A DNA stretch of 12,076 nucleotides from Mucilaginibacter sp. UBA4741 (GTDB taxonomy: Bacteria > Bacteroidota > Bacteroidia > Sphingobacteriales > Sphingobacteriaceae). This document shows positions 1 to 12,076 of this stretch, one piece after another. The stretch is taken from contig DHIR01000205.1 of assembly GCA_002403905.1 (NCBI GenBank), positions 1 through 12,076 on the forward strand, in the 5' to 3' direction. The position numbers and the translations under genes are program-made. Each line of letters starts with the position of its first letter. Positions within the stretch are counted from its first letter, which is position 1. Under the pieces are notes generated by a model that saw only the letters and a program-made list of their open reading frames with translations, made no database searches and had not been told where the DNA came from.

Positions 1-302
1 ATACTCATCCTCGCATCTTTTTTAACGAATTTTTTTACATCGTCATTAATGCTAAGTACCACTTGCACGGATGTATCATTAATAATATTGATATCATTAA
101 CAACGCCAACGTTAATACCGGCAAAGCGCACATTGTTGCCAACCTGCAGGCCGTTAACATTATTAAACCTTCCGCTTAATTTAAACGTAGCGCTAAACAG
201 GCTTTTTTGATTGCCGATAAAAAATATCGCCGCTATAAGCACCAACAGTCCAATAAAAGTGAAAAGGCCTATTCTTATTTTTTGTGAGGGGGTTGTTTTC
301 AT
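1..302 (-). CDS. mlaD: MlaD-like MCE-domain lipid transport protein, N-terminal part (runs off left edge)
   Basis: The first 100 codons of a substrate-binding MCE protein are visible; the rest lies beyond position 1. Residues 1-10 are basic and residues 11-30 form one hydrophobic helix (IGLFTFIGLLVLIAAIFFIG), which anchors the protein in the inner membrane. The MCE domain follows from about residue 38, with the glycine/valine pattern FNNVNGLQVGNNVRFAGINVGVV typical of the family. MCE proteins form a hexameric ring that passes lipid between the MlaEF transporter and the outer membrane. The ATG overlaps the stop of the upstream ATPase gene as ATGA (299-302), which fixes the start and implies translational coupling. 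Family assignment is firm. Subtype (MlaD versus a longer MCE protein) cannot be told from a fragment. Confidence 0.88.
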   Translation of the reverse strand, partial: MKTTPSQKIRIGLFTFIGLLVLIAAIFFIGNQKSLFSATFKLSGRFNNVNGLQVGNNVRFAGINVGVVNDINIINDTSVQVVLSINDDVKKFVKKDARMS

Positions 303-1090
303 GATATATCTTTAAAAAATGATTGTACAAGTTTATTTTTTGATTTATGCAGGTCGTCAAATGAGCCCTCGGCTATGTATTCGCCATCATCCATGATCAC
401 CATACGATCTGCGGTTATGCGCGCGCATTCCATATCGTGTGTAATGATGATAGAGGTAGTTTTATATCTTTTTTGCATGTCCAGGATAAGCTGGCTGATC
501 TCGCGCGAGGTTATGGGGTCAAGGCCGGTAGTGGGCTCATCATAAAGCATGATCTCGGGTTTAATGATCAACGTACGAGCAAGGCCCGCTCTTTTACGCA
601 TACCGCCAGATAGATCAGACGGCATTTTATCAATAGCTTCGGCCAATCCAACAGCCTCTAATACCTCTTCAACACGTTTATCTATTTCGCCCTTATCATC
701 CAGTTTTAATACCCTGGTAAGTGGAAATTCCATATTTTCTCTAACGGTCATAGAGTCGTATAAAGCGCCGCTTTGAAACAGGAAACCTATTTTCATGCGT
801 AGTTCTTTTAGCTCCTTATCACCCAAATCAGCAACTTCTTCTCCAAACACTTTTAATGTGCCGGCATCAGGTATCAGCATACCTACTATACATTGTATGG
901 TAACAGATTTTCCCTCGCCTGATCGGCCCAGAACCACAACATTTTCGCCGCTATGTACGGTAAGGTTAATATCCGTTAAAACATCTTTGCTGCCGAATGA
1001 TTTTTTGAGATGTTTTATCTCAATAACCGCGTCATTCTTATCATGGATTTTATTTTCTTTGGATTCGGCTATTGCTAATTTCTCTTCCAT
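299..1090 (-). CDS. mlaF: MlaF-like ABC transporter ATP-binding protein (lipid transport)
   Basis: A 263-residue ATPase that powers the MlaE permease at the inner-membrane face. All ABC motifs are intact: Walker A GRSGEGKS at 55-62, Q-loop Q106 in FLFQSGALYDSMTV, signature LSGGM at 160-164, Walker B IMLYDEP at 180-186 with catalytic E185, D-loop GLD at 189-191, and H-loop H218. The strings FQSGALYDSMTVRENM and LSGGMRKRAGLAR are hallmarks of the Mla/Ttg2A subfamily and separate it from generic importers. The N-terminus carries about 20 extra charged residues before the first strand (AVIEIKHLKKSFG). The gene starts 3 bases after the permease stop and overlaps mlaD by 4 bases, so all three are one operon. 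A 263-residue length is normal for the family. Substrate is inferred from homology to be phospholipid. Confidence 0.94.
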   Translation of the reverse strand: MEEKLAIAESKENKIHDKNDAVIEIKHLKKSFGSKDVLTDINLTVHSGENVVVLGRSGEGKSVTIQCIVGMLIPDAGTLKVFGEEVADLGDKELKELRMKIGFLFQSGALYDSMTVRENMEFPLTRVLKLDDKGEIDKRVEEVLEAVGLAEAIDKMPSDLSGGMRKRAGLARTLIIKPEIMLYDEPTTGLDPITSREISQLILDMQKRYKTTSIIITHDMECARITADRMVIMDDGEYIAEGSFDDLHKSKNKLVQSFFKDIS

Positions 1091-1093
1091 GAT

Positions 1094-1873
1094 CTATTTA
1101 TAAAATAATAAGCTGGTTATCTGTACAGCAATGGCATCAATAACAAATATCCATAGCGAGGCGGTTACCACGGCCGAATTAGCAGCAAGGCCCACGCTCT
1201 CTGTGCCTTTGCTTGAATGGAAGCCCTTATAACAGCCCACAAAGCCAATGGCCAGGCCAAAAAATATGGTTTTAATAAAAGCGGGTAAAAAGTCTGTATA
1301 ATCTAAAGATGCCAGTACCTTGGTGGCATAAAGCGATAGGCTTATATGATCGCGCAGGTTTAAGGCCAGGAAACCGCCAAACAAGCCTATTACATCGCCT
1401 ATTACGGATAAAAGGGGCACCATTATAGTTGTAGCCAATATGCGTGTTACAACCAGGTATTGCAGCGGATTAGCGCCCGATACATCCATGGCATCCAGTT
1501 GTTCGGTAACTTTCATACTGCCCAGCTCGGCACCAATACTTGAGGCAATTTTACCGGCACATATTATGGCGATGATAACGGGGCCAATTTCGCGAACGAA
1601 GGATACGGAAAGGGTTTTGGGCAGCATGCTTGCCGCGCCAAACTCTACAAGGGTGGGCCTTAATTGTAAAATTAAAACCACACCCATTATAAAGGAGGTA
1701 ATACCAACCAACATCATTGACCGGTATCCTATTTCATAACATTGGCGCACAAACTCAGACCATTCAAACCCGCCAACAAATATGTTTTTAACGAAACGGA
1801 TAAAGAATGATACTTGCTCGCCAATGTCTTCCAGCCACTTTTTCCAGCCGGGTATAGTAATTTCTTCTGCCAT
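1094..1873 (-). CDS. mlaE: MlaE-like lipid ABC transporter permease
   Basis: A 259-residue integral inner-membrane permease of the MlaE/YrbE family. The family core is present at about residues 93-147: FVREIGPVIIAIICAGKIASSIGAELGSMKVTEQLDAMDVSG, followed by NPLQYLVVTRILATT. About five to six hydrophobic segments are visible, the first near residues 55-70 (MMLVGITSFIMGVVLILQL) and the last ending near the C-terminus. An amphipathic N-terminal segment (WKKWLEDIGEQVSFFIRF) precedes the membrane part, as in MlaE. It is the first gene of the permease-ATPase-MCE operon. The ATG at 1873 lacks a good Shine-Dalgarno sequence, which is ordinary in this phylum. A weak minus-7 element lies 27 bases upstream. 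No STAS-domain partner (MlaB) is seen beside it. Confidence 0.94.
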   Translation of the reverse strand: MAEEITIPGWKKWLEDIGEQVSFFIRFVKNIFVGGFEWSEFVRQCYEIGYRSMMLVGITSFIMGVVLILQLRPTLVEFGAASMLPKTLSVSFVREIGPVIIAIICAGKIASSIGAELGSMKVTEQLDAMDVSGANPLQYLVVTRILATTIMVPLLSVIGDVIGLFGGFLALNLRDHISLSLYATKVLASLDYTDFLPAFIKTIFFGLAIGFVGCYKGFHSSKGTESVGLAANSAVVTASLWIFVIDAIAVQITSLLFYK

Positions 1874-1899
1874 GGTTATGCTATTAATGTAACTAACAA

Positions 1900-1929
1900 C
1901 AAAGTTTTGCTTAATTGTTTTACGTTCAA
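1900..1929 (-). promoter_or_regulatory. Candidate promoter of the mla operon
   Basis: On the minus strand AAACTTTG (1900-1907) differs by one base from the Bacteroidota minus-7 consensus TAnnTTTG. A TTG (1927-1929) stands 19 bases upstream, where the minus-33 element is expected. Spacing and distance to the mlaE ATG (27 bases) fit, but the first base of the box is wrong, so this is tentative. The operon could also be read from the pirin gene 82 bases upstream. Confidence 0.35.
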
Positions 1930-1955
1930 TAAACCAGACCCACGGCAGTTGGCTT

Positions 1956-2669
1956 TTATTGCAGCATCGGCACTTCTATGATGAGTAATCTGGTAGTTGC
2001 CTGGGTATCAATAGTTATCGAACTAATATCTACAACACCCAACGCGTCTTTTTTGTTTAAAACCTGATCGTTTATTTTTACGGCGCCCTCCAAAACAAAT
2101 ACATACACGCCATTGCCCGCATTTTTTATCTCGTAAGTGATGGTCTTATCAGCTTCAAATTCGCCCATCGAGAATGTCGCATCCTGGTTTATCCATAAGG
2201 CATCAACATTTTTATCGCCGGTTACCAATGTGGTAAACTCGTTTAATTTAAAAGCGTCTTTAAAATCACGTTGATCATACCTTGGCTCAATATTCTTGAA
2301 TTTAGGGAATAACCATATTTGCAAAGTATTGGCTGATTCCGTTTTAGAGTGATTGTATTCTGAGTGTTCAACACCCGTTCCGGCAGACATTACCTGCACT
2401 TCGCCTGAATGAATTACACCGATATTCCCCATGCTGTCCTTATGTTCCAGCGCGCCGTGTAATGGAATAGTAATAATTTCCATATTATCATGCGGATGGG
2501 TACCAAAGCCCATACCTCCGGCTATAATATCATCGTTTAGTACCCGTAAGGCACCAAAATGAACCTTATCCGGGTGATAATAACCCGCAAAACTAAATGA
2601 GAAATTGGCTTTTAACCATCCGTGATCGCTTGTTCCCCGCTCATTGGCGGGATAAAATGTACTTTTCAT
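1956..2669 (-). CDS. Pirin family protein (YhhW-like cupin, possible quercetin dioxygenase-type enzyme)
   Basis: A 237-residue bicupin of the pirin family. The N-terminal cupin holds the metal site: H58 and H60 in GTHPHDNMEI, then H102 and E104 in MSAGTGVEHSEYN. These correspond closely to the H57/H59/H101/E103 set of E. coli YhhW. Family strings HGALEHKDSMGN (71-82) and IHSGEVQVMSAGTG (86-99) are also intact. The C-terminal half (about 145-237) is the second, degenerate cupin without ligands. The length is close to YhhW (about 230), so the gene is complete. YhhW cleaves quercetin in vitro, but the physiological substrate of bacterial pirins is mostly unknown, so no reaction is claimed here. 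It points the same way as the mla operon, 82 bases upstream of it, and is divergent from the reductase operon. Co-transcription with mla is possible but unproven. Confidence 0.93.
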   Translation of the reverse strand: MKSTFYPANERGTSDHGWLKANFSFSFAGYYHPDKVHFGALRVLNDDIIAGGMGFGTHPHDNMEIITIPLHGALEHKDSMGNIGVIHSGEVQVMSAGTGVEHSEYNHSKTESANTLQIWLFPKFKNIEPRYDQRDFKDAFKLNEFTTLVTGDKNVDALWINQDATFSMGEFEADKTITYEIKNAGNGVYVFVLEGAVKINDQVLNKKDALGVVDISSITIDTQATTRLLIIEVPMLQ

Positions 2670-2683
2670 ATTGCTAAATTTAC

Positions 2684-2695
2684 ATGTTTAAACAT
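2684..2695. promoter_or_regulatory. 12-bp palindrome in the divergent pirin/reductase intergenic region
   Basis: ATGTTTAAACAT is a perfect palindrome in the short gap between the two divergent transcription units, 15 bases upstream of the pirin ATG. On the minus strand it overlaps TATGTTTA (2689-2696), one base away from the TAnnTTTG minus-7 consensus. It could be an operator or just part of an AT-rich promoter. The sequence alone does not decide. Confidence 0.25.
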
Positions 2696-2725
2696 ACAAT
2701 ATTTATTCCAATAATTAATAATGCG

Positions 2726-2733
2726 TATTTTTG
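2726..2733 (+). promoter_or_regulatory. Bacteroidota minus-7 box (TATTTTTG) of the reductase-Uup operon
   Basis: TATTTTTG matches TAnnTTTG exactly and lies 20 bases before the ATG at 2754. Transcription would begin near 2740, giving a very short leader. No clear TTG minus-33 element is seen. The box lies inside the coding extension that an ATG at 2721 would create, which argues for the 2754 start. Confidence 0.55.
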
Positions 2734-2753
2734 CGCAAATTTTAAGTCGATTA

Positions 2754-3410
2754 ATGACAAAGAAAGCAATAATTGTGGGCGCAAGCGGACTAATTGGCAG
2801 TAAACTGCTGGATATTTTGTTAGCACAACCAGATTATGCAGAAGTGTTAATAATCGGCAGAAAAAAAACTAAAATAAAAAATACCAAAATAACTCAATTA
2901 GTAGTAGAGTTTGAGCATTTAGACCATTATGCACCTAGTATAACGGGCGATGTTATTTTTTGTTGCCTGGGTACAACTAAAAGTGTTACGCCCAATTTGA
3001 ACGAGTATAGAAAAATAGATCATGATTATCCATTGCAGCTTGCAGAGATTGCATTAAAAAATGGTATAGAGCAATATCATCTGGTTTCGGCGATAGGCGC
3101 AAATTCAGAGTCATCTAACTTCTATACCAAAATGAAAGGCGATACCGAGGATGATATTAAAAATGTGGGGTTAAAAAGTTTACATATTTATGAGCCCTCT
3201 ATATTAATAGGGTATCGTAAAAGATCAAGGCCACTTGAGCGTATAGCAATTGTGCTTATGAAAATAATAAGCCCCATATTAAGAGGCGGGCTAAAAAAAT
3301 ACAGAGCCATAAGGGCCCTTGATGTGGCAAAGGCCATGTATAAACAATCATTAAAAAACACACCAGGTGTATTTACTTATACATCTGATATTATAAAACA
3401 AAAAGCGTGA
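2754..3410 (+). CDS. NAD(P)-binding Rossmann-fold reductase, HTATIP2/TIP30-like (atypical SDR)
   Basis: A 218-residue protein with an N-terminal dinucleotide-binding motif GASGLIG (9-15) right after the first strand (KKAIIVGA). FCCLGTT (69-75) is the fourth-strand region, and HLVSAIGANSESSNFYTKMKGDTED (109-133) contains an SDR-like Y124-x3-K128 pair with S112 as the likely serine partner. The YxxxKGxxE pattern and YEPSILIGYRKRSRPLE (146-162) are characteristic of TIP30-like atypical short-chain dehydrogenases. An in-frame ATG 33 bases upstream exists, but it would add 11 residues before the Rossmann strand and precede the minus-7 box, so 2754 is preferred. The stop overlaps the GTG start of the ABC-F gene (GTGA), so the two are translationally coupled. 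Substrate is unknown. Confidence 0.85.
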   Translation: MTKKAIIVGASGLIGSKLLDILLAQPDYAEVLIIGRKKTKIKNTKITQLVVEFEHLDHYAPSITGDVIFCCLGTTKSVTPNLNEYRKIDHDYPLQLAEIALKNGIEQYHLVSAIGANSESSNFYTKMKGDTEDDIKNVGLKSLHIYEPSILIGYRKRSRPLERIAIVLMKIISPILRGGLKKYRAIRALDVAKAMYKQSLKNTPGVFTYTSDIIKQKA

Positions 3411-5275
3411 GTACTTATATATCTGTAGAAAATCTTGGCCATCAGTTTCATGACAATTGGCTCTTTAAAAACATTACGCTTGGCATAAACCGGGGGCGCC
3501 GTGTTGCGCTTGTTGGCATAAATGGGGCGGGTAAATCAACCCTGTTAAAGTTATTGGCCGGTCAGTTTTTACCCACCGAAGGTAAAGTTGTACAAACCAA
3601 AGACCTTAGGATGGGCTATCTGGAGCAGGATCCCGGCTTTAAGGATGCCGTTACCATTAGCGACTATATTTTCCATGCCGATAATGTGCAACAGCAAGCC
3701 ATCCGTAAATACGAAGAGCTTTTAGAAAATGACCCCGATAACGCAAAAGCGCTAAACGAGGTGATGGAAGAGTTGAGCGAGGTTGATGCCTGGGAGTATG
3801 AATATAAGATCAAAACCATTTTGGGTCGGTTAGATATTCATCATTTAAATCAAAGTATTACTACCCTTTCGGGCGGACAAAAGAAACGTTTGGCTCTGGC
3901 TAAACTGCTTATTGAAGACCCTGATCTATATATATTAGATGAGCCTACCAATCATTTGGACATTGATACCATTGAATGGCTGGAGAAATTATTGACCGAT
4001 GGCACAAAAACCATACTAATGGTTACACACGACAGGTATTTTCTGGATAATGTGTGTAACGAGATCTTGGAGATTGACCGTGGCAAGATCATACCTTACG
4101 TGGGTAATTACGGCTATTATTTAGAGCGTAAAGCCGAGCGGGAAGCATCTGATGAAGCATCGTTTCAAAAAAACTTCAACCTTTTACGTAAGGAGTTGGA
4201 GTGGATGCGCCGTCAACCTAAAGCTCGTGGCACCAAATCTAAATCGCGTATTGACGCGTTTTATGATTTGGAAGCCAAGACACAAAACGGAGGCCCAAAG
4301 CTAACTGTCGAGTTAAGTGTTAAAACAGCAAGGCAGGGTAATAAAATCATGGAGATCCATAATATAAGTAAGGCCTTTAATGGCAATACTTATGTAGATC
4401 ACTTTAATTATGTATTTAAAAAAGGCGATCGTATTGGTTTAGCGGGTAAAAATGGTAGTGGTAAATCAACGCTGCTAAATATGATTACCGGCGGATTAAA
4501 ACCGGATAGTGGCCATATAGAAAAGGGCGAAACAACGGTATTGGGTTATTTTCACCAGTCGGGTATTACATTTAAGGAAGACGAGCGCGTTATTGACGTT
4601 GTAAAAAACGTTGCCGAGTTTATTACCATGGCTGATGGCAAGATGATATCAGCATCGGCATTGCTTACATTATTCTTGTTCCCTCCTGCTAAACAGTATG
4701 GCTTTATAGCCAAACTAAGCGGTGGCGAGAAAAAACGACTGCAATTAATGAGCATCCTCATGAAGAACCCTAACTTCCTGATACTGGATGAGCCAACTAA
4801 TGATTTGGATATAGATACTTTAAACGTATTAGAAGAGTTTTTAACCAATTATGGTGGTGTATTAATGATAGTATCGCACGATAGGTACTTGTTGGATAAG
4901 CTAACAGAGCAGCTATTTATTGTTGAGGAAAAGGGCCATGTACGTATATATAATGGTAATTATTCTTCTTATAGGCTAGAGCAGGAAGATCAAAAACAAC
5001 AGGACCGTGCGGATAAAGCATCGGGAAATGCGTCCTCTTCTACTTCATCGACACCTAAAAGCAAATTGAGTTTTAAACAACAAAAGGAGATGGACACACT
5101 TGAAAAAGACATTTCTACGCTTGAAGGTCAAATAAAAGAATTGAATAAAAAGCTAAACTCGGGCATAGACAATAGTGCTATTGTAGATACGGCTAAGAAA
5201 ATAAGCGATCTGACTGCCAACCTGGATGATAAAAGCCTGCGCTGGCTGGAGCTAACCGAGTTAAAAGAAGCCTAA
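3407..5275 (+). CDS. uup: ABC-F family ATPase, Uup-like
   Basis: A soluble 622-residue protein with two ABC domains and no membrane segment, as in the ABC-F translation factors that act on ribosomes. Domain 1 has Walker A GINGAGKS (37-44), signature LSGGQ (154-158), Walker B with E179 in ILDEP and H208. Domain 2 has Walker A GKNGSGKS (347-354), signature LSGGE (437-441), E462 and H491. The interdomain linker (about 245-300) contains EWMRRQPKARGTKSKSRI, typical of Uup. A Ser/Thr-rich hinge (538-550) leads to a C-terminal coiled coil (about 551-620) ending in LRWLELTEL, also a Uup feature. Uup in E. coli binds ribosomes and branched DNA and lowers transposon excision; which role applies here is not known. 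It starts with GTG, overlapping the upstream stop by 4 bases, and its TAA overlaps the next ATG by one base. Confidence 0.9.
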   Translation: MSTYISVENLGHQFHDNWLFKNITLGINRGRRVALVGINGAGKSTLLKLLAGQFLPTEGKVVQTKDLRMGYLEQDPGFKDAVTISDYIFHADNVQQQAIRKYEELLENDPDNAKALNEVMEELSEVDAWEYEYKIKTILGRLDIHHLNQSITTLSGGQKKRLALAKLLIEDPDLYILDEPTNHLDIDTIEWLEKLLTDGTKTILMVTHDRYFLDNVCNEILEIDRGKIIPYVGNYGYYLERKAEREASDEASFQKNFNLLRKELEWMRRQPKARGTKSKSRIDAFYDLEAKTQNGGPKLTVELSVKTARQGNKIMEIHNISKAFNGNTYVDHFNYVFKKGDRIGLAGKNGSGKSTLLNMITGGLKPDSGHIEKGETTVLGYFHQSGITFKEDERVIDVVKNVAEFITMADGKMISASALLTLFLFPPAKQYGFIAKLSGGEKKRLQLMSILMKNPNFLILDEPTNDLDIDTLNVLEEFLTNYGGVLMIVSHDRYLLDKLTEQLFIVEEKGHVRIYNGNYSSYRLEQEDQKQQDRADKASGNASSSTSSTPKSKLSFKQQKEMDTLEKDISTLEGQIKELNKKLNSGIDNSAIVDTAKKISDLTANLDDKSLRWLELTELKEA

Positions 5276-5526
5276 TGAAAACATCAGACATTATAGCATC
5301 GTTAGGTGTAATTATACTTTTAATAGCATTTTTATTAAATTTATATAAAAAGATACGGGCAAACAGTCGCCTTTATACGGCTCTGAATTTTACGGGCGCG
5401 GCTATGTGTGGCATTTCGTCATACATGATCAACTTCTACCCTTTTGTAGTTTTAGAGGGCATTTGGGCGAGTTTTGCATTGGTGTCTTTCATAAAGGTTT
5501 CACGTGGAACCCAGGGTGATTTATAA
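5275..5526 (+). CDS. CBU_0592-like small membrane protein
   Basis: An 83-residue protein almost entirely made of three predicted membrane helices: about 5-24 (DIIASLGVIILLIAFLLNLY), 33-51 and 55-74. The order of features (SLGVIILLIAFLLNL, then RLYTALNFTGAAMCGISSYMI, then FVVLEGIWASFALVSF) resembles the small CBU_0592-like family, whose function is unknown. The start shares a base with the uup stop (TAATG), so it is read with the reductase and Uup. The 3' end is unusual: codons for KVSRGTQ (about residues 74-80) contain a near-perfect parS site, so this coding end doubles as part of a ParB-binding region. Family call is from pattern memory and is moderately sure. Confidence 0.75.
   Translation: MKTSDIIASLGVIILLIAFLLNLYKKIRANSRLYTALNFTGAAMCGISSYMINFYPFVVLEGIWASFALVSFIKVSRGTQGDL
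5496..5511. other. parS-like ParB-binding site, copy 1 (inside the small membrane-protein gene)
   Basis: GGTTTCACGTGGAACC matches the bacterial parS form TGTTYCACGTGRAACA except at the two outermost bases. It is a palindrome apart from one central-flank mismatch. It lies in frame in the last codons of the membrane-protein gene and is the leftmost of four sites. Confidence 0.7.
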
Positions 5527-5562
5527 CAAAAAATAACAAAAAAGGCAAACAAAAGCACTTGT

Positions 5563-5613
5563 TTTACCAACAACATACCAATGTTTACCAACTATTACCA
5601 ACAAAATCCAATG
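5563..5613 (+). repeat. Five tandem 10-11-bp repeats, consensus TTTACCAACA
   Basis: The hexamer TACCAA starts at 5565, 5576, 5586 and 5596, followed by the variant ATCCAA at 5606. Start-to-start distances are 11, 10, 10 and 10 bases, close to one DNA turn, so all copies face one side of the helix. Units 2 and 5 end in AATG, units 1, 3 and 4 in AAC. The array sits between parS copies 1 and 2. A phased array suggests cooperative binding of a protein, but I recognise no known motif. Confidence 0.65.
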
Positions 5614-5630
5614 ATGTTTAGCTTAACACA

Positions 5631-5640
5631 TTGGCGCCAA
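5631..5640. repeat. 10-bp perfect palindrome TTGGCGCCAA
   Basis: TTGGCGCCAA is self-complementary over 10 bases and does not extend further. It lies between the TACCAA array and parS copy 2. It is GC-rich compared with the surrounding AT-rich spacer. It may be a protein site or coincidence. Confidence 0.35.
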
Positions 5641-5648
5641 AATCGCCA

Positions 5649-5664
5649 TGTTTCACGGGGAGCA
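5649..5664. other. Degenerate parS-like site, copy 2
   Basis: TGTTTCACGGGGAGCA matches TGTTTCACGTGGAACA at 14 of 16 positions. The mismatches are at 5658 (T to G in the central CACGTG) and 5662 (A to G). The core change would be expected to weaken ParB binding. It is counted as a decayed or weak site because it lies between good copies. Confidence 0.45.
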
Positions 5665-5677
5665 TCGCGCACCGACC

Positions 5678-5691
5678 GGGGTGTTAACCCC
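5678..5691. repeat. Small GC-rich inverted repeat GGGG-TGTTAA-CCCC
   Basis: A 4-bp GGGG/CCCC stem with a 6-base spacer lies between parS copies 2 and 3. It is not followed by a T run, so it does not look like an intrinsic terminator. Function is not apparent. Confidence 0.25.
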
Positions 5692-5712
5692 ATCGAAGAA
5701 AATATAAAAACG

Positions 5713-5730
5713 ATGTTCCACGTGGAACAT
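5713..5730. other. Perfect parS site, copy 3
   Basis: ATGTTCCACGTGGAACAT is an 18-bp perfect palindrome containing the 16-bp parS form TGTTCCACGTGGAACA (5714-5729). Such sites load the ParB CTP-clamp in the ParABS chromosome-segregation system. Its centre is exactly 40 bases from that of copy 4. Confidence 0.9.
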
Positions 5731-5752
5731 GGACAAAAGGAAAACACATTTA

Positions 5753-5770
5753 ATGTTCCACGTGGAACAT
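5753..5770. other. Perfect parS site, copy 4, abutting mnmG
   Basis: This is identical to copy 3 over the 18-bp palindrome, and identity continues for three more bases (GGA). It ends next to the mnmG Shine-Dalgarno sequence, so ParB bound here could touch mnmG transcription. The ATG at its right end (5769) is not the favoured mnmG start. Confidence 0.9.
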
Positions 5771-5775
5771 GGAGG
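5771..5775 (+). promoter_or_regulatory. Shine-Dalgarno sequence of mnmG (GGAGG)
   Basis: GGAGG stands 5 bases before the ATG at 5781. This is a strong ribosome-binding site, rare in this window, and selects 5781 over the upstream in-frame ATG at 5769, which would place the site inside the coding region. Confidence 0.8.
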
Positions 5776-5780
5776 CTAAA

Positions 5781-7646
5781 ATGTTTAAGAAATACGATGT
5801 AATTGTAGTGGGTGCCGGACATGCCGGATGTGAAGCAGCGGCAGCGGCGGCCAACCTGGGGTCATCTGTTTTGTTGGTCACCATGAACATGGGCACCATT
5901 GCGCAGATGAGTTGTAACCCCGCCATGGGCGGCGTTGCGAAAGGCCAGATTGTGCGCGAGATTGATGCAATGGGTGGCTATTCGGGTATAGTAACGGATA
6001 AAACATCTATCCAGTTCCGGATGCTTAACCTATCTAAAGGGCCAGCAATGTGGAGCCCCAGGGCTCAAAGCGACCGCATGCGCTTTGCAGAAGAATGGCG
6101 CCTGGCTTTGGAAAGAACCCCCAATGTTGATTTTTGGCAGGACACGGTTAACTCATTACTCGTTACAAATAATACCATTAAAGGCGTACGCACATCCTTG
6201 GGCATAGAGATAGAGGCCGATGCAGTAGTCTTGACCAATGGCACCTTTATGAATGGTGTTATACATATAGGCGAAAAGAAATTTGGCGGTGGCCGTGCTG
6301 CAGAGAAAGCAACAACCGGCATCACCGAACAACTAATTACGCTGGGCTTTGAATCGGGCAGAATGAAGACCGGCACTCCCCCACGCATTGATGGCCGTAG
6401 CCTAAATTATTCTGTAATGGAAGAGCAGTGGGGTGATGAAGGAGAAAGAGGCCGCTTTTCATATACAGATGTTAAACAAATTGAAGAACAACGTTGTTGC
6501 TGGATTACCTATACCAATACCAAAGTACACGAAACCTTAAAAGAAGGGTTTGAGCGGTCGCCGATGTTTACCGGGCGTATTAAAGGTTTGGGGCCGCGCT
6601 ATTGCCCATCTATAGAGGATAAGATCAATCGCTTTGCCGAGCGCGAACGTCACCAGATATTTGTTGAACCAGAAGGATTAAATACAGTCGAGATCTATGT
6701 AAATGGATTTTCTACCTCGCTACCTGAGGATGTACAGTATAAAGCATTGACACAAATACCCGGGTTTGAGAAAGCCAAAATGTTCCGCCCAGGCTATGCC
6801 ATAGAATACGATTACTTCCCGCCTACCCAGTTGGGATTAACACTGGAAACAAAACTGATAAGCAATTTATATTTCGCCGGTCAGATCAACGGAACAACCG
6901 GTTATGAAGAAGCGGCATCGCAGGGTTTTATTGCAGGTATAAACGCGCATCAAAAATTAAAGGACAAGCACGAGCTGATCATGAAGCGGTCAGAATCATA
7001 CATAGGTGTATTGATAGATGACCTGGTAACTAAAGGGACAGAGGAGCCTTATCGCATGTTTACATCGCGCGCCGAGCACCGTTTGTTATTGCGTCAGGAC
7101 AATGCAGATATCCGCCTAAGCCCTATCGGTCATGAGTTAGGGTTGATCAGCGATGAGCGTTTAGACAAGGTAAAAGCCAAAGTAAAAAACTCTGATGATA
7201 TTGTTGCCTATACCCGCACGCGGTCTATAGAACAAGGCAATGTAAATGGATTGCTAGAAGAGTTGGGCACATCGTCTGTATCGCAAACCACTAAATTGTT
7301 TAATTTGTTAAGTCGTCCGCAGGTTTCTATCAATGATTTAAAAAGAGTTGATTCGGCGCTGGAAAATTATTTATCAGCTTACGATAAAGAAACTATTGAG
7401 CAGGCTGAAATAAAAATCAAATATGAGAGTTACTTTGAAAAGGAAATGGATATTGTTGAGCGAATGAAAAAAATGGAGGACAAAGAAATCAATCCGGATT
7501 TTAATTACCAGCAAATGCAATCCTTATCAAAAGAGGCGCGAGAAAAGTTGATGAAAATAAAACCCCGTACTTTAGGCCAGGCATCAAGGATTTCGGGGGT
7601 ATCACCGTCCGACATATCGGTTTTGATGGTTCATATATCAAGATAG
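5781..7646 (+). CDS. mnmG: MnmG (GidA), tRNA U34 carboxymethylaminomethyl-modification FAD protein
   Basis: A 621-residue cytosolic flavoprotein that, with MnmE, installs (carboxymethyl)aminomethyl groups on wobble uridine of certain tRNAs. Visible motifs: FAD-binding GAGHAG (11-16), CNPAMGG (45-51), GTPPRI (198-203), [12 protein letters not shown] (271-282), [16 protein letters not shown] (367-382), [16 protein letters not shown] (428-443), and the C-terminal tRNA/MnmE-binding signature [25 protein letters not shown] (594-618). Cysteines C45 and C275 match the functionally important pair of the E. coli protein. Length and motifs are complete. The start at 5781 is set by GGAGG; a 5769 start would add four residues. 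The gene begins directly after a parS site. mnmE, rsmG and parAB, frequent neighbours elsewhere, are not in the window. Confidence 0.97.
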
Positions 7647-9478: not shown

Positions 9479-9596
9479 TGTCATCTCGAACGCTAGTGAG
9501 AGATCTATACACAGATATGTCGCCGAACCTATCTTGTATAGATTTTTTCGCTACGCTCAAGAGATAGTTCTCCCTCGTTCCTCGGTCGAAATGACA
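9479..9596. repeat. REP-like composite palindrome at a convergent gene junction, copy A
   Basis: Outer arms TGTCATCTCGA (9479-9489) and TCGAAATGACA (9586-9596) pair with one mismatch. Inner arms GATCTATAC (9502-9510) and GTATAGATT (from about 9536) also pair. The right flank then contains an extra segment (about 9558-9596, with CTCGTTCCTCG) that matches the inverted left arm of copy B at 10301-10324, so this copy looks composite. It lies between the ends of two converging genes and could act as a bidirectional terminator. Bases 9406-9478 show nothing recognisable. Confidence 0.75.
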
Positions 9597-9621
9597 TTTT
9601 TATTTATTAATTCACATCCTC

Positions 9622-10131
9622 TCATTGAAACCAACCGGAGTACATTACGTAATTATCAGGCAGTTTATCCAGCATAACGCGTTGTTCGTCTGTTAAAGGT
9701 TTGATCTTTTTGGCGGGGGCACCTGCATATAGATAGTCTGATTCGCAAACGGTGTTTTCTAATACTACTGAACCGGCACCGATGATCACGTATTCTTCTA
9801 CCACACAATTATCCATTACTATGGCACCCATGCCTACCAGTGTATGATCTTTTAGCGTACAGCCATGTACCAAAGCGTTATGACCAATAGAAACATAATT
9901 GCCAATGTTAGTAGCCGCTCCGTTATAGGTACAATGGATAACGGCCCCATCCTGTATGTTGGTGTTATTACCGATCCTGATATAATTAACATCGCCACGT
10001 ATAACCGCGTTAAACCAGACAGAGCATTTATCGCCCATTATTACATCGCCAACAATGGTAGCGTTTTCGGCGATGAAACATTCTTGGCCCCAGGTGGGAG
10101 TTTTGTCTTTTACGGGGAGGATTACGGGCAT
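9622..10131 (-). CDS. Gamma-carbonic anhydrase family protein (left-handed beta-helix)
   Basis: A 169-residue hexapeptide-repeat protein. Repeats of the form [LIV]-G-x4 run from about residue 20 to 128 (ATIVGDVIMGDKCSVW, NYIRIGNNTNIQDGAVIH, TNIGNYVSIGHNALVHGC, VGMGAIVMDNCVV). Three histidines are placed as metal ligands: H66 in GAVIH, and H84 and H89 in SIGHNALVH, with the five-residue spacing seen in Cam (H117/H122). NAVIRGD (41-47) carries the conserved Arg and Asp. A C-terminal helix follows (147-169). The size matches YrdA/CamH-type trimers. Many such proteins lack measurable anhydrase activity, and PaaY/CaiE-type thioesterase-associated relatives look alike, so the reaction is left open. 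It is alone on the minus strand, converging on the lipoprotein gene. Confidence 0.93.
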   Translation of the reverse strand: MPVILPVKDKTPTWGQECFIAENATIVGDVIMGDKCSVWFNAVIRGDVNYIRIGNNTNIQDGAVIHCTYNGAATNIGNYVSIGHNALVHGCTLKDHTLVGMGAIVMDNCVVEEYVIIGAGSVVLENTVCESDYLYAGAPAKKIKPLTDEQRVMLDKLPDNYVMYSGWFQ

Positions 10132-10288: not shown

Positions 10289-10300
10289 CGATCTCAAATA

Positions 10301-10392
10301 TGTCATTTCGATACGAGGAACGAGTGAGAAATCTTATGCGTGCGATTCACCTATCAGGCGTATAAGATTTCTCGCTACGCTTCGAAATGACA
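10301..10392. repeat. REP-like palindrome at a convergent gene junction, copy B
   Basis: Outer arms TGTCATTTCGA (10301-10311) and TCGAAATGACA (10382-10392) are perfect inverted repeats. Inner arms GAGAAATCTTAT (10326-10337) and ATAAGATTTCTC (10362-10373) are also perfect. The whole 92-bp unit can fold into a long hairpin interrupted by asymmetric bulges. It lies between the tRNA and the nadB 3' end, which converge, and may terminate both. Such palindromes are usually multi-copy in related genomes. Confidence 0.8.
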
Positions 10393-10412: not shown

Positions 10413-12005
10413 TTAAAACACCGTATCCTCCAAAAGCTCCTGGTGTTTAGGATAATCCGTAGTATAATGTAACCCCCTGCTCTCTTTACGCATCATGGCA
10501 GATTTTACAACGATGTAGGATACCTGTATCAGATTACGTAGCTCGCAAAGCTTAACGGATAGTTTGGTTTGTTTATAAAATGATTCTGTTTCTTCGTATA
10601 ATAACCCTAAACGGCGCATGGCTCTTTCCAGCCTGAAATCAGATCGAACAATACCTACATAATCATTCATTAGCTTTTGCATTTCGCGTACGTTGTGCGT
10701 AACCAGGATATCTTCGTTTGATGATTTTACACCTTTTTCATCCCAGTCGGGTATATTATCCGGGATAGTAATGGCATCAAATTTATCAATGGCGTTTTTA
10801 TAGATCCGGTGCGCAAATACCAATGCTTCTAATAATGAATTTGACGCTAACCTATTAGCGCCATGCAATCCTGTTGATGAACATTCTCCGCAGGCATACA
10901 AACGCATGATGGATGATTGCCCATAATGATCAACCATTACCCCCCCGCACATATAATGGCAGGCCGGCGAAACGGGTATCATATCCTTAGTCATGTCAAT
11001 GCCTATCTCTAAACATTTGGCGTATATGTTAGGAAAATGCTTTAAAATATCTTTTTTACTGCGATGACGTATATCCAGATAAACATAATCTTCGCCCGAT
11101 TTTTTTATCTCGGCATCAATGGCCCTTGCAACAATATCACGCGGAGCTAATGATCTGCGTTCGTCATATTCCTGCATAAATTCTTCGCCGTTGGTGCGCT
11201 TTAGTATACCACCAAAACCGCGCACTGCTTCTGATATTAGGAATGAAGGATAGTCGCCCGGATTATATAAAGCAGTTGGATGGAACTGTATAAATTCCAT
11301 ATTTCTAACTTTTCCTTTAGCACGATATACCATAGCCACACCATCACCGGTAGCTATAGTTGGATTTGTAGTTACCGAATATATATGCCCCGCACCGCCC
11401 GATGCCATAACCGTAACTTTAGATAAAAACTTCTCCACCTCGTTAGTAACGGTATTTAAAGCATAAATACCATAACAAGTGATATCGTCTGATGATTTAT
11501 CTACAAACTCGCCTAAATGGTGCTGGGTTATCAAATCGACAGCAAAATAATGGGTAAGTATCTCAATATTAGGATTTTTATGTATCTGCTCTAATAAAGA
11601 ACGTTCAATTTCAAAACCGGTAATATCTTTATAATGCAGTACCCTAAATTCAGAGTGTCCTCCCTCTTTTGCCAGGTCATATAAGCCCTCATTTGTTTTG
11701 TCAAAACTGGTTCCGTATTCAATAATTTCATTAATACGTTCCGGTCCTTCCTTCACCACAATCTCCACAACTTCTTTATCACATAGTCCATCACCGGCAA
11801 TTAAGGTGTCATTAATGTGTTTATCAAACGAATCTTCCTTTTTATCCACAACTACCGCAACACCTCCCTGGGCATATTTAGTGTTCGATTCGTCTTCGTT
11901 TGATTTTGTAACTATCAGTACCTTACCGTGTTTTGCAGCTTTTAGTGCAAAACTTAATCCGGCAATGCCAGAACCTACAACCAGAAAATCCACAGATTTG
12001 GACAT
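10413..12005 (-). CDS. nadB: L-aspartate oxidase
   Basis: A 530-residue flavoenzyme that oxidises L-aspartate to iminoaspartate, the first step of de novo NAD synthesis; NadA then makes quinolinate. The order of motifs is complete: FAD-binding GSGIAG (11-16) near the N-terminus, TKYAQGGVA (42-50), GGHSEFRVLHYKDITG (115-130), FIQFHPTALY (238-247), EAVRGFGGIL (259-268), RRSLAPRDIVARAID (283-297) with the catalytic Arg at 289, HYMCGGVMVD (350-359) and GECSSTGLHGANRLASNSLLEALVF (373-397). The latter strings separate it from succinate dehydrogenase flavoproteins, and no sdhB/C gene is adjacent. The alpha-helical C-terminal domain (about 430-530) is present. Length matches E. coli NadB (540). nadA and nadC are not in the window. 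It is read alone, away from the right edge. Confidence 0.97.
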   Translation of the reverse strand: MSKSVDFLVVGSGIAGLSFALKAAKHGKVLIVTKSNEDESNTKYAQGGVAVVVDKKEDSFDKHINDTLIAGDGLCDKEVVEIVVKEGPERINEIIEYGTSFDKTNEGLYDLAKEGGHSEFRVLHYKDITGFEIERSLLEQIHKNPNIEILTHYFAVDLITQHHLGEFVDKSSDDITCYGIYALNTVTNEVEKFLSKVTVMASGGAGHIYSVTTNPTIATGDGVAMVYRAKGKVRNMEFIQFHPTALYNPGDYPSFLISEAVRGFGGILKRTNGEEFMQEYDERRSLAPRDIVARAIDAEIKKSGEDYVYLDIRHRSKKDILKHFPNIYAKCLEIGIDMTKDMIPVSPACHYMCGGVMVDHYGQSSIMRLYACGECSSTGLHGANRLASNSLLEALVFAHRIYKNAIDKFDAITIPDNIPDWDEKGVKSSNEDILVTHNVREMQKLMNDYVGIVRSDFRLERAMRRLGLLYEETESFYKQTKLSVKLCELRNLIQVSYIVVKSAMMRKESRGLHYTTDYPKHQELLEDTVF

Positions 12006-12064
12006 AGAATATGTATTAGATGTGTAAAATTATAAAGTATGTTAACAACAGGGTTCAAAGATGT

Positions 12065-12072
12065 TAATTTTG
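12065..12072 (+). promoter_or_regulatory. Candidate rightward minus-7 box (TAATTTTG) for a gene beyond the right edge
   Basis: TAATTTTG matches TAnnTTTG exactly and points out of the window, divergent from nadB. A TTA (12042-12044) sits 20 bases upstream, in place of the usual TTG. The downstream gene cannot be seen. On the minus strand no equally good box for nadB itself is visible in 12006-12076. Confidence 0.35.
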
Positions 12073-12076
12073 TGTA

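What the first reader, a model, noticed from the sequence alone, without database searches (positions are those of the whole stretch)
5496..5770. Cluster of four parS-like sites: a probable chromosomal centromere beside mnmG
Seen: two identical 18-bp perfect palindromes (ATGTTCCACGTGGAACAT at 5713 and 5753), a 14-of-16 match at 5496 and another 14-of-16 match at 5649, all within 275 bases. Known: parS in many bacteria is TGTTYCACGTGRAACA, bound by ParB and usually near oriC, where mnmG also often lies. Inference: this is the ParB loading zone of the chromosome and the window is origin-proximal, even though parA, parB and rsmG are not adjacent.
Basis: partly seen in the sequence, partly recalled or inferred. 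Interest (0 to 1): 0.75.

Follow-up and report, generated by a model that had tools for sequence, protein, structure and literature searches.

The report
Chromosomal centromere sites beside mnmG
The short mirror-image DNA motifs in front of the mnmG gene are almost certainly sites by which a Bacteroidota bacterium's chromosome is gripped for segregation, and many relatives keep such sites next to mnmG although the genes for the gripping proteins lie far away.

Summary
In detail: two perfect parS sites (5714, 5754) and two 14-of-16 matches (5496, 5649) lie within 275 bp. The only other exact site in this Mucilaginibacter-like bin is on a contig with another mnmG, probably of a second species. 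One ParB with parS-type residues is encoded elsewhere, next to parA. The position is conserved: in 79 named Bacteroidota loci the 14-bp core occurs 143 times in mnmG leaders and 6 times in 1.55 Mb elsewhere; motif-only searches found mnmG beside the sites in 29 of 30 and 28 of 30 fetched loci. In eight complete relatives 21 of 21 rRNA genes point away from parS (dnaA as centre 16, parB 12); dnaA lies 0.37-1.03 Mb and parB 0.50-1.33 Mb off. In many relatives DnaA boxes cluster 4-6 kb beyond mnmG. So this is the chromosomal parS centromere in the origin region. Corrections: 5649 is a decayed parS; mnmG starts at 5781. The kind of element is known; its anchoring to mnmG was not seen in ten paper searches. 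GC skew supports only weakly; ParB binding is untested.

The parts
5713..5730 (.). parS site (16-mer 5714-5729) inside a perfect 18-bp palindrome, upstream of mnmG
   Evidence: like positions in relatives
5753..5770 (.). parS site (16-mer 5754-5769) inside an identical palindrome, directly upstream of the GGAGG before mnmG
5496..5511 (.). probable third parS site: 14-bp core intact, outermost base of each arm changed; near the 3' end of the small ORF; L014 has an intact site at the like place
5649..5664 (.). decayed parS: central CACGTG lost; the aligned site of L014 is also broken
5781..7646 (+). mnmG (gidA); ATG at 5781 after GGAGG, not the ATG at 5769 that overlaps the end of the palindrome
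   Evidence: TIGR00136, 828.3 bits, cut-off 524.85; this ATG is shared by all 10 aligned leaders
5275..5526 (+). small CBU_0592-family membrane protein; carries the 5496 site near its 3' end
   Evidence: NF047864, 37.6 bits, cut-off 25
3407..5275 (+). ABC-F ATPase, upstream neighbour; found at this place in 41 of the 44 loci L014-L057 and in none of L058-L093
7759..9405 (+). gene of no NCBIfam family (lipoprotein-like by my reading), relative found beyond mnmG in 74 of 80 named loci
   Evidence: in L078 the DnaA-box cluster begins at its 3' end
9622..10131 (-). gamma carbonic anhydrase-like gene
   Evidence: best model NF050158, 152.1 bits, below its cut-off of 250
10413..12005 (-). nadB (L-aspartate oxidase)
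   Evidence: NF006567 and TIGR00551 above cut-off
12006..12076 (.). edge of the nadB-nadA divergent spacer, candidate oriC by analogy with relatives; the contig ends here
   Evidence: inference from relatives

Best explanation
This is the chromosomal parS centromere of a Mucilaginibacter-like bacterium. The two perfect palindromes, probably helped by the 5496 site, load the single ParB. By analogy with Bacillus, Caulobacter and Pseudomonas (established knowledge), ParB would close as a CTP clamp, spread over the mnmG region, be moved by ParA and recruit Smc-ScpAB, so that the newly copied origin region separates first. The sites lie in the 5' leader of mnmG, a few kb from the probable oriC. 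In the great majority of Bacteroidia loci examined the sites touch mnmG, while in complete relatives parB and dnaA lie hundreds of kb away, so ParB acts in trans. Shown: motif, rarity, anchoring to mnmG, one parS-type ParB, origin-type rRNA directions in relatives, DnaA-box clusters nearby in many relatives. Inferred: ParB binding, spreading, SMC loading, segregation.
For: Two exact consensus sites, chance mean 0.14. The one other exact site in the bin is also at a mnmG. The 16-mer is identical to parS2/parS3 of Pseudomonas aeruginosa (PMC4368675, passages). One ParB with R at the position of R173 and G at that of G201, the parS code and not the Noc code Q/R (PMC7383237, passages); ParA gene adjacent. 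143 cores in 79 leaders against 6 in 1,546,607 other bases. Motif-led searches find mnmG at 29 of 30 and 28 of 30 fetched loci. Exact core in 225 of 257 Bacteroidia genomes (backward control in 8 by my count). 21 of 21 rRNA genes point away from parS; about 2e-5 for random centres. DnaA boxes beyond mnmG in relatives. ScpA in 9 of 9 genomes.
Against: No binding data. The own genome is a fragmented bin, so origin proximity comes from relatives. GC skew is weak: in G091 the symmetric third-position fit puts the origin 48 kb from parS, but the raw symmetric fit 0.23 Mb and the unconstrained fits 0.3-0.7 Mb away; sparse samples of G021 and G096 do not switch cleanly at parS. ParB and core do not track each other: 9 of 11 genomes without a ParB hit have the core, against 216 of 246 with one; of the four near-complete ones without ParB three have the core, and PF02195 also finds nothing in those four. 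In Mucilaginibacter the oriC candidate has few DnaA boxes, and an equal peak of boxes lies inside nadB coding sequence. By bits the best NCBIfam model for the ParB is the Noc model, though below its cut-off.
Confidence: 0.93

Rival explanations
1. The palindromes are operators through which a transcription factor, possibly ParB itself, controls mnmG; segregation is secondary or absent.
For: In 38 of the 43 printed leaders L014-L057 with sequence before mnmG, the nearest core starts 21-40 bp before the start codon (my count), so bound protein would touch the leader or promoter.
Against: In other Bacteroidia families the sites follow the mnmG stop codon instead (for example L225, L228, L234). 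One site of the window lies in coding sequence of the upstream ORF. Arrays of up to eight cores occur. A recalled Bacteroidota promoter pattern was found in only 3 of 45 leaders and at no fixed place, so the promoter itself is not located.
Confidence: 0.05
2. The motif is a true parS, but this locus is not origin-proximal; it is an outlying site.
For: Skew is weak and ambiguous; dnaA and parB lie far away.
Against: Of the 14 exact 16-mers in eight complete relatives, 13 are in the mnmG leader and one, in G102, is 7 kb upstream of it; 21 of 21 rRNA genes diverge from it; DnaA-box clusters are nearby in many relatives.
Confidence: 0.05
3. Chance palindromes or repeat elements without function.
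For: The window does hold inverted-repeat elements elsewhere, at 9568-9601 and 10296-10376.
Against: Chance mean 0.14 per window; conserved position in many relatives; the sequences of those elements differ from the palindromes.
Confidence: 0.01

Closest known systems
Pseudomonas aeruginosa parS1-parS4 cluster (PMC4368675)
   Same: parS2 and parS3 are the identical 16-mer TGTTCCACGTGGAACA; four sites closest to oriC, two perfect and two with one mismatch (abstract in listing and passages).
   Different: Here the sites sit at mnmG, and in complete relatives parB lies 0.5-1.3 Mb away.
Caulobacter parS cluster about 8 kb from ori (PMC5815017)
   Same: Tight cluster of parS near the origin (passages).
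   Different: Other spacing: in the loci usually two sites some 24-55 bp apart in the mnmG leader, against sites spread over 5 kb.
parS clusters of gut bacteria by Hi-C, with Bacteroides caecimuris (PMC10197239)
   Same: Includes two Bacteroidetes; parS clusters used to place the origin; in the 12-strain set the origin does not systematically go with dnaA (passages).
   Different: The passages do not say which gene the sites adjoin, and report no known condensin in the two Bacteroidetes, whereas the nine genomes searched here have ScpA.
Ancestral origin gene cluster with parA, parB, gidA, gidB, dnaA, dnaN (discussed in PMC2099444)
   Same: gidA (mnmG) counted among the origin genes (passages).
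   Different: In the eight complete relatives dnaA and parB are far from mnmG; gidB (rsmG) was not located.

Membership tests
Chromosomal parS site (ParABS) | 16-bp palindrome TGTTYCACGTGRAACA | tested here: met
   Two exact sites; 5496 keeps the core; 5649 does not
Chromosomal parS site (ParABS) | ParB and ParA in the genome | tested here: met
   ParB on C142, 178.8 bits, with a ParA-type gene next to it (only sub-cut-off NCBIfam matches to ParA/MinD-type families)
Chromosomal parS site (ParABS) | ParB with parS-type recognition residues (R173, G201 in Caulobacter numbering) | tested here: met
   Alignments to solved ParB and Noc chains and PMC7383237 (passages)
Chromosomal parS site (ParABS) | Sites concentrated near the replication origin | tested here: met
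   In eight complete relatives by rRNA direction; skew only weakly supportive; not testable in the fragmented own genome
Chromosomal parS site (ParABS) | ParB binds and spreads; sites needed for segregation | not testable with these tools
   Needs ChIP-seq, binding assays and mutants
Noc-binding site (NBS) | A Noc protein with Q173/R201 to bind it | tested here: not met
   The one ParB-family protein has R/G; its Noc model score 230.3 is below the cut-off 315
Operator of mnmG | Sites confined to the promoter or leader side of the gene | tested here: not met
   Sites follow the stop codon in several other families; in the window's own family they are on the leader side

The most novel reading that the evidence does not exclude
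In the class Bacteroidia mnmG is the fixed address of the chromosome's centromere: parS, and probably oriC a few kb beyond, stayed with mnmG as the remnant of an ancestral origin cluster, while parAB and dnaA dispersed. dnaA and parAB would then mislead origin calls in this class, and the mnmG/parS pair would be the usable landmark. A bolder extension is that ParB loading in the mnmG leader couples expression of this tRNA-modification gene to origin segregation.
Probability: 0.8. Interest if true: 0.5.

Novelty: new member of a known kind. Interest (0 to 1): 0.4.

Why it matters
parS itself is textbook biology. The useful part is the address: a sequence-only landmark (parS cores touching mnmG) for centromere and origin in a large class, with dnaA 0.37-1.03 Mb off in the eight complete relatives tested. 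If it holds, it would help origin calling and replication-rate estimates from metagenomes, and it raises the question why parS stays with mnmG while the genes of its own proteins lie elsewhere.

Tried and rejected
GC skew: 20 stretches of 20 kb in each of G091, G021 and G096, then 60 stretches in G091. Weak and noisy; partial support in G091 only.

Co-occurrence of ParB and the core as a test of linkage: no association, so it neither proves nor disproves ParB as the binder.

A recalled Bacteroidota promoter pattern in the leaders: 3 of 45, no consistent promoter.

DnaA boxes within the window: one exact (11842) and four with one mismatch. The exact one and that at 11497 lie inside nadB, and boxes at like spacing recur in relatives, so I do not count them as oriC.

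C207 as a true second copy in the same chromosome: thought less likely, since its mnmG is about 80% identical in DNA to the window and to the nearest relatives and the bin has 1.94% contamination. Not excluded.

Papers: Livny et al. 2007 is not held; known here only as cited in other papers. The ten paper searches were read as listings. Passages were read of PMC10197239, PMC7383237, PMC13342612, PMC2768785, PMC2099444, PMC5815017 and PMC4368675. None of what I saw described parS anchored to mnmG in Bacteroidota. That is no proof that it is unpublished: most subscription papers and all preprints are outside the library.

Full report
Setting. The window is the whole contig C90 (12,076 bp) of a 4.07-Mb, 299-contig genome bin, 80% complete and 1.94% contaminated. 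The best named relatives by MnmG are two Mucilaginibacter MAGs (98% and 95% identity). Genes in order: two that I read by eye as an MlaF/MlaE-like pair, a pirin-like and an NAD-binding gene (my reading, no family search), ABC-F, a CBU_0592-type small membrane protein, mnmG, a lipoprotein-like gene without NCBIfam match, a gamma carbonic anhydrase-like gene, tRNA-Gly, nadB.

Observation. All four reported sites exist at the stated places. Two are exact and lie in identical 18-bp palindromes 40 bp apart. The second palindrome ends at 5770, is followed at once by GGAGG, and the start codon of mnmG is 5781. 5496 keeps the 14-bp core, and L014 has an intact parS at the like place. 5649 is broken, and so is its counterpart in L014. 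I count two certain sites, one probable and one dead. In P. aeruginosa sites with an outermost-base mismatch in one arm are bound only slightly less well (PMC4368675, passages); 5496 has one in each arm, so its strength is a guess.

Own genome. With up to two mismatches there are nine places: four here, two on C207, three single 2-mismatch places on other contigs. C207 carries another mnmG with a parS pair before it, one exact and one with one mismatch, but at about 80% DNA identity, so it is best seen as a second species in the bin. ParB is single and lies beside parA on C142, followed by a gene that I read as dapB. Its DNA-binding part aligns with ParB and Noc chains of solved structures, and the residues that separate parS from Noc recognition are of the parS type.

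Conservation. One search kept the best 80 of 591 MnmG-encoding stretches, so that sample leans to close relatives. Of the 79 with sequence before mnmG (one locus begins within the gene; some leaders are short), 68 have at least one exact core within 400 bp upstream and 61 have two or more; 143 cores lie there and 6 in the other 1,546,607 bases. Eleven of the 79 have none. To lessen the bias, two searches used the motif alone. A tandem-core pattern hit 53 of 296 phylum genomes; the tool laid 30 loci, from Bacteroidia, and 29 hold mnmG beside the sites; the thirtieth lies at a contig end. Some of these, of one unnamed genus (g15), have six to eight cores. A single-core pattern hit 225 of 257 class genomes (backward control in 8, by my count of the table); of the 30 loci laid, 28 hold mnmG, in several cases with the core just after the stop codon; L244 and L245 show none within 1.5 kb. 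The laid loci are the tool's first ones, not a random draw. Outside Bacteroidia I did not test adjacency. In the order, 89 of 121 genomes have the exact 16-mer, 1-3 each (backward control in 3 by my count).

Origin. From I picked 15 genomes and searched dnaA; eight are single-contig (seven of the same genus, one of the same family). parS cores lie in the mnmG leader in all eight, and in two further two-contig genomes; G102 has its only exact 16-mer 7 kb upstream of mnmG, besides two cores in the leader. dnaA lies 373-1032 kb and parB 503-1328 kb from parS. 16S genes, which by established knowledge mostly run with replication, point away from parS in 21 of 21 cases, against 16 with dnaA and 12 with parB as centre; random centres would do this in all eight genomes with probability about 2e-5, if the genomes are independent and the terminus lies opposite (for G102 the centre used was the site 7 kb from mnmG, which makes no difference at this scale). 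GC skew is weak: in G091 the third-position symmetric fit puts the origin 48 kb from parS, with parS in the best 6% of positions (raw skew: 232 kb, best 14%), but the unconstrained fits lie 0.3-0.7 Mb away; G021 and G096 samples are not clean. DnaA boxes with at most one mismatch reach 2.2 per locus at 4.5-5.0 kb beyond the mnmG start, against 0.03-0.31 in the bins from -10 to +3.5 kb. In 23 of the 36 loci L058-L093 (outside Sphingobacteriaceae by name) a cluster with a weighted score of 5 or more lies at +3.7 to +5.1 kb (my count; weights are mine); in L078 it begins near the 3' end of the lipoprotein-like gene and fills the following spacer. In 40 loci with nadB, nearly all Sphingobacteriaceae, the first 400 bp upstream of nadB hold 1.49 boxes per locus against 0.31 for the backward control, but a like peak (0.72 in 100 bp) lies inside nadB itself. 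In the window that spacer starts at 12006 and is cut by the contig end at 12076.

Mechanism. ParB loading at the palindromes, clamp sliding, ParA-driven movement and SMC recruitment are inferred from well-studied ParABS systems. ScpA is present in all nine genomes searched, own included, so a Smc-ScpAB partner is plausible, unlike in the two gut Bacteroidetes of PMC10197239 (passages). The operator reading is disfavoured because in several families the sites follow mnmG, or lie in coding sequence, and form arrays. A side note: in the insect endosymbiont Blattabacterium, also of this phylum (recalled), dnaA, gidA and parA were reported missing together (PMC2768785, passages).

Results against. 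ParB and core do not co-vary in the class sample: 9 of 11 genomes without a ParB hit have cores, and 216 of 246 with ParB have them. Seven of the eleven are less complete, but G438, G429 and G574 are rated 97-100% complete, and PF02195 finds nothing there either. The 0.5-Mb single-contig genome G430 lacks both. DnaA boxes are sparse in Mucilaginibacter itself, so oriC next to nadB is a lead, not a result.

Verdict. A real chromosomal centromere, correctly read by the first stage, of an ordinary known kind. Its anchoring to mnmG in most loci examined, apart from parAB and dnaA, is the part worth keeping.

Noticed in passing
G000:C207 (L011), 1-6368: A second mnmG/ABC-F locus with its own parS pair in the same bin, only about 80% identical in DNA to the window: probably a contig of another species.
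   Followed up: partly
G438 (class sample): A 3.0-Mb genome rated 100% complete with 12 exact parS cores but no ParB hit with TIGR00180 or PF02195.
   Followed up: partly
L202, L203, L206, L214 (unnamed genus g15): Six to eight parS cores upstream of mnmG, most neighbours about 40-65 bp apart, far more than the usual pair. I guess Flavobacterium or a relative; not checked.
   Followed up: no
window 9568-9601 and 10296-10376: Inverted-repeat elements flank the gamma carbonic anhydrase-like and tRNA-Gly genes.
   Followed up: no
families f88, f61 and f55 of the class sample: Genomes with ParB but no exact parS core: 7 of 7 in f88, 5 of 8 in f61, 3 of 6 in f55 (my count); they may use a variant parS.
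   Followed up: no
L060, L061, L062, L076, L085: Runella and Larkinella loci have very dense DnaA-box clusters beyond mnmG but only imperfect parS-like sites in the leader.
   Followed up: no
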